In this document: positions 25,655 through 27,838 of the stretch, piece by piece | How positions within the stretch are numbered: position 1 is the stretch's first letter | Layout: each line of letters opens with the position of its first letter | NCBI GenBank assembly: GCA_947258795.1 | Contig: CAMYJU010000022.1 | Coordinates: forward strand, 1 to 50,477 | Origin: an uncultured Gammaproteobacteria bacterium | Lineage (GTDB): Bacteria > Pseudomonadota > Gammaproteobacteria > DRJJ01 | Length of the DNA stretch: 50,477 nt | Reading direction: 5' to 3' | Program-made: the position numbers and the translations under genes | Notes under the pieces: generated by a model | The model's database searches: none | What the model saw: only the letters and a program-made list of their open reading frames with translations | What the model was told of the DNA's origin: nothing

Positions 25655-26185
25655 ATGCCTGAGTATCGACGCATATGGCAGCCAGGCGGTGTCTATTTCT
25701 TTACGGTTAACCTGTTACAGCGCCATGGTAATGATCTGCTTGTCCGTCGTATGGATTTACTGAGACGTGTTGTCAAGTCTGTCAAGAATCGTCATCCATT
25801 CAGAATACACGGATGGGTGGTGTTGCCTGATCATCTCCATTGCATCATTGAGTTGCCAGCTAATGACATGGATTTTTCAATGAGGTGGCGACTGATCAAA
25901 ATGGGTTTATCAAAGTCCTTGCCTGTAGTTGAGAAACGGTCGGTTGTAAGGATCAGGCGGGGTGAACGTGGTGTCTGGCAACGACGCTATTGGGAGCATC
26001 TGATACGTGATGAGAAGGACTATCAGGCGCATATGGACTATATCCATATTAATCCTGTGAAGCATGGATTGGTTAACCGGGTATGCGAGTGGCCATATTC
26101 AACTTTTCATCGATTGGTTGAGCGGGGTATATACCCACGGGATTGGGCGGGTGGAGAAGAGAGCAGTCTCGAATATAACGATTGA
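25655..26185 (+). CDS. REP-associated tyrosine transposase (RAYT)
   Basis: This 176-residue protein is a Y1-type HUH nuclease of the RAYT (IS200-like, TnpA-REP) family. The histidine pair is in [15 protein letters not shown] (about residues 49-63), and the catalytic tyrosine lies in [17 protein letters not shown] (about 129-145). The N-terminal [20 protein letters not shown] is also typical. All catalytic residues are present and the frame is open, so it may be active. Flanking REP-like palindromes are its likely substrates. RAYTs are single-copy host genes rather than self-copying elements. Confidence 0.93.
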
Positions 26186-26270: not shown

Positions 26271-26344
26271 TTTCAACTTTCCTTCTGGATAACCCTGAGA
26301 CAGCAACAATTGACACCACTGTCCGGATAGACTAGGATTATTTA

Positions 26345-26400
26345 ACGCGCCGATTTGATCAACAGCTTGCGGGCGCATGATAAATACTGCTAAAGCGAGG
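26345..26400 (+). ncRNA. SAM-II riboswitch upstream of metZ
   Basis: The segment matches the SAM-II (SAM-alpha) aptamer in order and spacing: CGCGCCGATTTG (26346-26357), GCTTGCGGGCGC (26365-26376), TGATAAAT (26378-26385) and GCTAAAG (26389-26395). Stem P1 pairs GCGC (26347-26350) with GCGC (26373-26376), and the GCTAAAGC strand forms the pseudoknot. SAM-II binds S-adenosylmethionine and turns off methionine genes. It lies directly before metZ, a methionine synthesis gene, with a terminator in between. SAM-II is best known from alphaproteobacteria. Confidence 0.92.
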
Positions 26401-26406
26401 CCGATG

Positions 26407-26432
26407 ACCTGCTTTAGCTAGCAGGTTTTTTT
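26407..26432 (+). terminator. Riboswitch-controlled terminator before metZ
   Basis: ACCTGCT (26407-26413), a 6-base loop, AGCAGGT (26420-26426) and seven T residues form a strong terminator 24 bases before the metZ frame. GCTTTAGC (26411-26418), inside the terminator, is the exact complement of GCTAAAGC (26389-26396) in the aptamer. When SAM is low these can pair as an antiterminator. When SAM binds, the aptamer occupies its strand and the terminator can form. Confidence 0.88.
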
Positions 26433-26467
26433 ATGCCTGTTATATCCGGATCGTAATGGAGCACAGT

Positions 26468-27652
26468 ATGTCTGAACACGATATAACCGACTGGCAACTG
26501 GCCACACTTGCGGTCAGGGCCGGGCAGGAGCGCACGGCGGAGGGCGAACATGCCGAGCCGATCTTTCCGACCTCCAGCTATGTTTTTGGCAGCGCCGCCG
26601 AGGCGGCCGCACGCTTTTCGGGTGAACAACCCGGGAATATCTATTCACGCTTTACCAATCCAACGGTGCGGACCTTCGAGCAACGCCTGGCCGCGATGGA
26701 AGGTGGAGAGCGTTGCGTGGCGACTTCATCCGGGATGGCGGCGATCCTGTCGACCTGCCTGGGCCTGCTGAACCAGGGTGATCACATCGTCTCGTCGCAA
26801 AGTATCTTTGGCAGTACGGTGGTGCTGTTCGATCAGCATCTGAGCCGCTTCGGTATCGAGACTACATTTGTTGCACAGGACGATGTGCAGGCCTGGGCAG
26901 ATGCGATACGTCCAGAGACGCGCTTGTTGTTTCTGGAGACGCCGTCCAACCCGCTAACCGAGATCGCAGACATACGCAAACTGGCCGAACTGGCACATCA
27001 AAACGATTGCCTGCTGGTGGTGGACAACTGCTTTTGTACACCGATCCTGCAAAGACCGTTGGAACTCGGTGCCGATATCGTGATTCACTCGGCTACCAAA
27101 TACCTGGACGGCCAGGGTCGCTGCGTTGGTGGTGCGGTAGTGGGTTCTGAACAACTGGTCGGTGAAGGGGTGTACGGTTTTCTGCGTACCGCAGGTCCTA
27201 CCATGAGTGCATTCAATGCCTGGGTATTCCTGAAGGGGCTGGAGACCCTGAAGGTGCGCATTGCGGCGCATTGCCAGTCGGCATTGACGCTGGCGCAATG
27301 GCTGGAACAGCAGGTGCAGGTTGAGCGGGTCTATTACCCGGGCCTGCCCTCGCACCCGCAGCATGAGTTGGCAATCCGGCAGATGAGTGCGGCCGGTGGA
27401 ATCGTTTCATTTGTGCTGAAGGGCGGCAAGGATGCGGCCTGGCGACTGATCGACAGTACTCGGCTGTTGTCGATTACCGCAAACCTGGGCGATACCAAAA
27501 CCACAATCACCCATCCGGCGACCACCACCCATGGCCGGATGACGCCGGAGGCCCGTCAGGCGGCCGGCATAGACGACGGGCTGATCCGTATCTCCGTCGG
27601 TCTGGAGGATATTGACGATATTATTCGTGATCTGTCTACAGGTCTGGGATAA
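26468..27652 (+). CDS. metZ: O-succinylhomoserine sulfhydrylase
   Basis: MetZ (394 residues from this start) makes homocysteine directly from O-succinylhomoserine and sulfide with pyridoxal phosphate. The PLP lysine is in IVIHSATKYLDGQGRCVGGAV (motif SATKYLDGQGR, about residues 202-212), with YSRFTNPTV and the GGMAAI-like loop SSGMAAILSTCLGL. The ATG at 26468 is preferred because GGAG lies 7 bases before it; the in-frame ATG at 26456 has no ribosome-binding site and adds four residues. Transcription is controlled by the SAM-II switch. A hairpin with a T-run at 27810-27836 may end it. Confidence 0.93.
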   Translation: MSEHDITDWQLATLAVRAGQERTAEGEHAEPIFPTSSYVFGSAAEAAARFSGEQPGNIYSRFTNPTVRTFEQRLAAMEGGERCVATSSGMAAILSTCLGLLNQGDHIVSSQSIFGSTVVLFDQHLSRFGIETTFVAQDDVQAWADAIRPETRLLFLETPSNPLTEIADIRKLAELAHQNDCLLVVDNCFCTPILQRPLELGADIVIHSATKYLDGQGRCVGGAVVGSEQLVGEGVYGFLRTAGPTMSAFNAWVFLKGLETLKVRIAAHCQSALTLAQWLEQQVQVERVYYPGLPSHPQHELAIRQMSAAGGIVSFVLKGGKDAAWRLIDSTRLLSITANLGDTKTTITHPATTTHGRMTPEARQAAGIDDGLIRISVGLEDIDDIIRDLSTGLG

Positions 27653-27737
27653 TAGAGCCTGATCAGGTCGCATTTGGCCTGAGTGAATACTTTATAATTT
27701 AGCGTCTTATACAAGGTTCATCGGAGCTATGCTTTCG

Positions 27738-27838
27738 CCTTCTCCCTCAGGGAGAAGGTCAGGATGAGGGGATAAATAAGCTTTTGTTATTTATATCCCC
27801 TCACCCCAACCCTCTCCCTGTGGGAGAGGGGGTTTTTT
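27738..27838. repeat. Complete composite hairpin repeat after metZ
   Basis: This is the clearest copy of the dispersed element. Hairpin A is CCTTCTCCCTCAGGGAGAAGG (27738-27758, 21 bases; arms CCTTCTCCCT and AGGGAGAAGG). It is followed by TCAGGATGAGGGGATAAATA and the near complement TATTTATATCCCCTCACCCC, and then by hairpin B with arms CCCTCTCCC (27810-27818) and GGGAGAGGG (27822-27830). Six T residues after hairpin B could make it a terminator for metZ. About 50 bases of featureless sequence follow before the next gene. Confidence 0.88.

What the first reader, a model, noticed from the sequence alone, without database searches (positions are those of the whole stretch)
26345..26432. SAM-II riboswitch with a visible terminator/antiterminator switch on metZ
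The aptamer matches SAM-II motifs, and its pseudoknot strand GCTAAAGC (26389-26396) is the exact complement of GCTTTAGC (26411-26418) inside the downstream terminator. This gives a simple mutually exclusive switch. SAM-II is best known from alphaproteobacteria, so a gammaproteobacterial metZ under SAM-II would be a notable distribution case.
Basis: partly seen in the sequence, partly recalled or inferred. Interest (0 to 1): 0.72.

Follow-up and report, generated by a model that had tools for sequence, protein, structure and literature searches.

The report
SAM-II riboswitch controlling metZ
The leader of this bacterium's methionine gene metZ holds a real SAM-II riboswitch, an RNA switch that should stop transcription when S-adenosylmethionine is plentiful; such switches turn out to be common in Gammaproteobacteria and are mostly missed by the standard database threshold.

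Summary
RF00521 matches 26337-26416 at 31.8 bits (gathering score 36), E 3.2e-5 in the whole genome, with no other credible match. A covariance model built only from other lineages' leaders scores the element 75.7 bits (E 6.7e-19; next best place 14.4). All SAM-II core letters are present. P1 is fully paired in alpha and gamma sequences and covaries between them. GCTAAAGC (26389-26396) is the exact complement of GCTTTAGC (26411-26418) in the terminator. Folding gives a terminator probability of 0.08 when the aptamer is free and 0.97 when its pseudoknot strands are locked; 0 of 200 aptamer shuffles were as low. A promoter lies just upstream and metZ (O-succinylhomoserine sulfhydrylase) just downstream.

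This is an ordinary SAM-II transcriptional OFF switch. The gammaproteobacterial location is not exceptional: 140 of 274 genomes in the class sample carry a match, upstream of metZ, metX or metK in most cases read, while Rfam's cut-off catches few. SAM-II in Gammaproteobacteria was reported in 2007 as sporadic. The orphan betaproteobacterial "metXZ element" (2014) is very probably this same riboswitch. SAM binding and termination were not tested experimentally.

The parts
26310..26338 (+). Sigma-70-like promoter: TTGACA (26310-26315), 17-nt spacer, TAGGAT (26333-26338); predicted start of transcription about 26345, just before P1
   Evidence: 10 of 12 consensus letters; 0.6 expected by chance. 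The start site is inferred. Corbino 2005 (PMC1273637) reports promoters just before P1 as usual for SAM-II.
26347..26351 (+). P1 5' strand GCGCC, pairs with 26372-26376
   Evidence: P1 100% paired with double-sided changes in A4
26352..26357 (+). Loop 1 GATTTG, invariant SAM-II core
   Evidence: Invariant in 31 alpha, beta-type and gamma aptamers
26363..26370 (+). P2 pseudoknot 5' strand CAGCTTGC
   Evidence: Pairs of 26367-26370 with 26389, 26390, 26392 and 26393 formed in 31 of 31 sequences
26372..26376 (+). P1 3' strand GGCGC
26389..26396 (+). P2 pseudoknot 3' strand GCTAAAGC; also the antiterminator strand
   Evidence: GCTAAA invariant in 31 of 31; exact complement of 26411-26418
26406..26432 (+). 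Intrinsic terminator: hairpin 26406-26427 plus T run 26426-26432; 26411-26418 (GCTTTAGC) is the part that pairs with the pseudoknot strand
26458..26461 (+). Likely Shine-Dalgarno GGAG for ATG 26468, outside the aptamer and the terminator
   Evidence: Sequence reading
26468..27652 (+). metZ, O-succinylhomoserine sulfhydrylase (ORF listed from ATG 26456; ATG 26468 has the better ribosome-binding site)
   Evidence: PRK08133.1 709.9 bits, cut-off 522; TIGR01325 583.2, cut-off 510

Best explanation
It is a SAM-II riboswitch acting as a transcriptional OFF switch for metZ. Transcription starts just before P1. With little SAM, GCUAAAGC (26389-26396) is free to pair with GCUUUAGC (26411-26418); this antiterminator destroys the 5' arm of the terminator and metZ is transcribed. 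With ample SAM, ligand binding closes the P1/P2 pseudoknot, the same strand is held in P2, the terminator forms and transcription stops at the T run, so the enzyme that makes homocysteine for methionine is not produced. Shown here by computation: aptamer identity, conservation, covariation, terminator, exact complementarity, and the thermodynamic switch. Inferred: SAM as ligand (from the conserved core), start site, and ligand-dependent termination.
For: RF00521 31.8 bits, E 3.2e-5 genome-wide, next best 16 bits. Model R1, built from 38 leaders without the window's genus, scores the window 75.7 bits. Core GATTTG / C.G.TTGC / GCTAAA invariant over 31 aptamers, including leaders from outside the class that score up to 87.7 bits on RF00521. 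P1 and the inner P2 are paired in 100% of cells; 44 double-sided cells against 16.6 in shuffles and 1-13 in slid controls. Terminator probability 0.084 free, 0.972 with the pseudoknot strands locked; 0 of 200 aptamer shuffles as low. The sister metZ leader (L038, 88% protein identity) keeps the same GCTAAAGC/GCTTTAGC pair and behaves alike: 0.056 to 0.963. 29 of 43 leaders have at least 6 contiguous Watson-Crick pairs between the pseudoknot strand and the downstream stretch. S. meliloti metZ SAM-II is predicted to terminate on SAM, with matching RNA levels (PMC9373788).
Against: The score is below Rfam's gathering cut-off. The outer part of P2 is poor in the window: of 26361-26363 with 26397-26399, only C26363-G26397 pairs. 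In many relatives the free terminator is already favoured at equilibrium (median probability 0.88 free; only 9 of 37 leaders significantly lower than aptamer shuffles), so for them the switch needs co-transcriptional kinetics that were not modelled. In the window, blocking the P1 3' strand also raises the terminator probability, so the lock test is not perfectly specific. No experiment.
Confidence: 0.92

Rival explanations
1. The element is a SAM-II aptamer, but the terminator is constitutive; regulation is by pseudoknot stabilisation or processing, or the leader mainly makes a small RNA.
For: In S. meliloti metA a terminator downstream of SAM-II is not predicted to respond to SAM, and riboswitch small RNAs accumulate (PMC9373788). 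Several relatives' terminators are stable without ligand.
Against: In the window the terminator is outcompeted without ligand (0.08) and the complementarity is exact. The complement TTTAGC/TTTGGC sits in the terminator's 5' arm even in leaders whose terminator arms differ (ACCTGC or CCCGG types).
Confidence: 0.06
2. The match is a divergent relative that senses another compound (for example SAH), or belongs to another SAM class such as SAM-V.
For: Rfam score under threshold; SAM-V shares the core with SAM-II (PMC2704228).
Against: Every core letter matches strong RF00521 members; the scan at E up to 10 listed no SAM-V match and only a weak SAM/SAH match at another place, and SAM_alpha is best by far; the target genes metZ, metX and metK are those of SAM feedback.
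Confidence: 0.03
3. Chance similarity; an ordinary terminator of an upstream transcript, with no riboswitch.
For: A minimum-energy fold of the whole 93 bases is not exceptional (z -0.32).
Against: E 6.7e-19 on an independent model; conserved upstream of metZ in 31 of 80 loci chosen by protein only; a promoter lies between the upstream gene and the aptamer.
Confidence: 0.005

Closest known systems
SAM-II riboswitch (Rfam RF00521 SAM_alpha), for example Sinorhizobium meliloti metZ and Agrobacterium metA
   Same: Same H-type pseudoknot, same invariant core, same pathway gene, downstream intrinsic terminator, promoter just before P1
   Different: P1 is GCGCC/GGCGC instead of the common CGTGG/CCACG; the outer P2 helix is short; scores below the Rfam cut-off
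metXZ RNA element of betaproteobacteria (Leyn 2014, PMC4239095), ligand unassigned
   Same: Sits before metX or metZ, has a pseudoknot (regions 1 with 4, 2 with 6), six conserved blocks and a terminator; reported on metZ in Methylophilales, where this aptamer is found (L075, L108, L116)
   Different: Described as separate from SAM_alpha; its alignment (Figure S2) was not readable here, so identity is inferred from the text
SAM-II long loops (RF01726) and SAM-V
   Same: Same or similar binding core
   Different: RF01726 gives only 14.4 bits (cut-off 44); SAM-V acts on translation and was not matched

Membership tests
SAM-II (RF00521) | Covariance score at or above Rfam's gathering threshold of 36 bits (a database cut-off, not a structural feature) | tested here: not met
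   31.8 bits. Judged a threshold effect: 12 of 114 relatives' genomes pass it, with a continuous run of scores 20-44; the independent model gives 75.7 bits.
SAM-II (RF00521) | P1 stem enclosing a long loop with GAUUU | tested here: met
   P1 26347-26351/26372-26376, GATTTG 26352-26357; P1 covaries across the set
SAM-II (RF00521) | P2 pseudoknot between the P1 loop and the 3' tail with GCUAAA | tested here: met
   Four inner pairs in 31 of 31 sequences (invariant, so no covariation there); outer pairs covary in the set but are weak in the window
SAM-II (RF00521) | Genomic context: methionine or SAM biosynthesis gene directly downstream | tested here: met
   metZ
SAM-II (RF00521) | Binds SAM and discriminates against SAH | not testable with these tools
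   Needs in-line probing or calorimetry
Transcriptional (terminator) riboswitch | Intrinsic terminator mutually exclusive with a ligand-free pairing of the aptamer strand | tested here: met
   (computation only)
SAM-II long loops (RF01726) | Gathering score 44 | tested here: not met
   14.4 bits

The most novel reading that the evidence does not exclude
SAM-II is the prevalent SAM sensor of Gammaproteobacteria in the broad (GTDB) sense, beta lineages included. It is largely inherited rather than sporadically transferred, it is found where MetJ is absent, and the unassigned betaproteobacterial metXZ element is the same riboswitch; Rfam's cut-off hides most of it.
Probability: 0.6. Interest if true: 0.5.

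Novelty: new member of a known kind. Interest (0 to 1): 0.36.

Why it matters
The element itself is a textbook case outside the textbook group. What it points to is of more use: a large set of SAM-II riboswitches below Rfam's cut-off in Gammaproteobacteria and beta lineages, a likely ligand for the orphan metXZ element, and a correction to the view (PMC2258182, PMC3766115, PMC4239095) that SAM-II is narrow or sporadic outside Alphaproteobacteria. The compact exact-complement switch is also a convenient system for in vitro attenuation assays.

Tried and rejected
Minimum-energy folding of the whole leader did not separate it from shuffles (z -0.32); such folding does not see pseudoknots. A per-leader complementarity p-value is weak in many relatives (13 of 43 at or below 0.05), because short perfect matches are common and G-U pairs carry part of the helix. 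Translational control was considered and rejected: the likely Shine-Dalgarno (26458-26461) lies about 26 bases past the terminator and is in neither structure. SAM/SAH and SAM-II long-loop models were rejected on score, and SAM-V gave no match. Recent horizontal transfer is not supported for the window: the sister metZ has the same leader, and presence of the aptamer is clustered on the metZ tree (14 changes against 25.4 in shuffles), though gains or losses recur. Tandem SAM-II copies seen in other genomes are already described (44 examples, PMC9481103). A plasmid search added only distant metZ relatives.

Full report
Observation. A terminator-like hairpin lies at 26406-26427 followed by T's (fold -12.0 kcal/mol, z -2.7). 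Eight contiguous Watson-Crick pairs between the pseudoknot strand and the next 60 bases compare with a mean of 5.04 in dinucleotide shuffles (p about 0.005). A sigma-70-like promoter TTGACA-17-TAGGAT ends at 26338, which puts the start of transcription next to P1.

Family scoring. At Rfam's gathering thresholds the window has no RNA hit. With an E-value threshold RF00521 SAM_alpha matches 26337-26416 end to end with 31.8 bits, gathering score 36, E 9.3e-6 for 231 bases and 3.2e-5 for the whole 3.36 Mb genome, where the next place scores 16 bits. Of 114 relatives' genomes 53 have a match at E 0.05 or better but only 12 pass the cut-off, the best at 44.2 bits. So the window falls in a well populated zone just under the threshold.

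Independent model. I aligned 38 aptamers from other genera (A2; the window and its sister left out), built model R1 and searched: the window scores 75.7 bits, E 6.7e-19, against 14.4 for the next place in the genome. Some members of A2 came from the RF00521 search, others from metZ loci chosen by protein alone. Of 80 such protein-chosen loci, 31 have an R1 match, all on the coding strand and upstream of metZ; 23 of those 31 were themselves among the sequences of the model or very close to them, so this count shows frequency and not independent support.

Anatomy. In an alignment of 31 alpha, beta-type and gamma aptamers (A4) the letters GATTTG, C.G.TTGC and GCTAAA are invariant. P1 is paired in every sequence, with C-G/U-A and C-G/G-C/U-A exchanges; the four inner P2 pairs never break or vary; the outer P2 pairs covary but are formed in 71% of cells. 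In all, 44 cells change on both sides, against 16.6 (sd 3.5) in shuffles and 1 to 13 when the partner columns are slid. Part of this contrast is one deep split between groups, so it counts few independent events. The window has P1 and the inner P2; of the outer P2 it keeps only C26363-G26397.

Switch. With the leader free to fold, the terminator stem has probability 0.084 and the pseudoknot strand is paired downstream with probability 0.85; with both P2 strands held unavailable, as in the SAM-bound form, the terminator rises to 0.972. With the aptamer shuffled and the terminator kept, the mean is 0.939 and none of 200 shuffles is as low as the real leader. Locking only GCTAAAGC is enough (0.972); locking the P1 3' strand also raises the value, a side effect to keep in mind. 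The sister leader L038 behaves the same way (0.056 to 0.963). Over 37 leaders the free terminator is lower than the shuffle mean in 20 (Wilcoxon p 0.003) and significantly so in 9. In the rest the terminator wins at equilibrium, so those switches would have to rely on the order of folding during transcription. The complement TTTAGC or TTTGGC is nonetheless kept in the terminator's 5' arm across many leaders with different arm sequences.

Gene. The ORF downstream is O-succinylhomoserine sulfhydrylase (PRK08133.1 709.9 bits, cut-off 522). The first ATG is 26456, but ATG 26468 has GGAG six bases upstream and is the more likely start.

Distribution. R1 finds matches at E 0.01 or better in 140 of 274 genomes spread over families of the class. 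MetJ (PF01340), the SAM-dependent repressor known from E. coli, is present in 2 of the same 274, and neither is among the R1-positive genomes listed. In one family with many genera (f107) 54 of 61 genomes match, and most of the leaders read there precede MetX-like genes (one protein 665 bits to MetX_succinyl). One match precedes metK (L202, 626.8 bits). Named records with the aptamer on metZ include Methylobacillus rhizosphaerae, Methylovorus menthalis, Methylotenera, Gallionellaceae and Candidatus Nitrotoga, all beta lineages, and Ectothiorhodospiraceae, Thiotrichaceae and Thiohalobacter. On the metZ tree the presence of the aptamer is clustered (14 changes, shuffles 25.4).

Literature. Corbino 2005 (PMC1273637) noted a few SAM-II in other proteobacterial lineages, promoters just before P1, and terminators. 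Barrick and Breaker 2007 (PMC2258182) listed SAM-II in Gammaproteobacteria as sporadic and possibly transferred, and noted that SAM-II in alpha and beta lineages is mostly tied to terminators. Meyer 2009 (PMC2704228) says in passing that SAM-II is most common in Alpha-, Beta- and Gammaproteobacteria. Leyn 2014 (PMC4239095) found SAM_alpha only in Rhizobiales and Rhodobacterales and described a separate metXZ element with pseudoknot and terminator in betaproteobacteria, on metZ in Methylophilales. The aptamer found here sits at that place in Methylophilaceae (L075, L108, L116), so the two are very probably one. The library holds no other paper with both 'metXZ' and 'riboswitch'. The S. meliloti metZ SAM-II riboswitch is predicted to act by termination, and its terminated RNA rises under high-SAM conditions (PMC9373788).

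Verdict. A genuine SAM-II riboswitch with a clean terminator/antiterminator switch, ordinary in kind. Its wider lesson is that SAM-II is common in this class and under-annotated.

Noticed in passing
L166 (G118), L167 (G084), L148-L152 (G246): Two SAM-II-like aptamers in tandem about 100 bases apart: the first followed by a terminator, the second by a purine-rich stretch that may be a hidden ribosome-binding site. G246 has ten R1 matches, and all five places read there are such pairs. Tandem SAM-II with mixed platforms is already described (PMC9481103).
   Followed up: partly
L149, L166: Genes downstream of some of these tandem pairs do not look like methionine genes (L149 an unfamiliar protein, L166 an AAA-ATPase-like protein); possibly other targets or mis-called ORFs.
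   Followed up: no
L202 (G462:C19:518938-519013): A SAM-II aptamer (34.1 bits) directly upstream of metK (SAM synthetase), with P1 changed in a compensated way (GCGTC/GACGC).
   Followed up: partly
L153, L154 (G049, G187): Small genomes with four R1 matches each; aptamers there lie near a homocysteine-methyltransferase-like gene and a cystathionine-synthase-like gene (read by eye).
   Followed up: no
window 25655-26185: A REP-associated tyrosine transposase gene (NF047646.1, 200 bits) ends about 125 bases before the metZ promoter.
   Followed up: no
window 27735-27835: A GC-rich inverted repeat (CCTTCTCCCTCAGGGAGAAGG ... CCCTCTCCCTGTGGGAGAGGG) just after metZ, possibly a mobile or REP-like repeat.
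   Followed up: no
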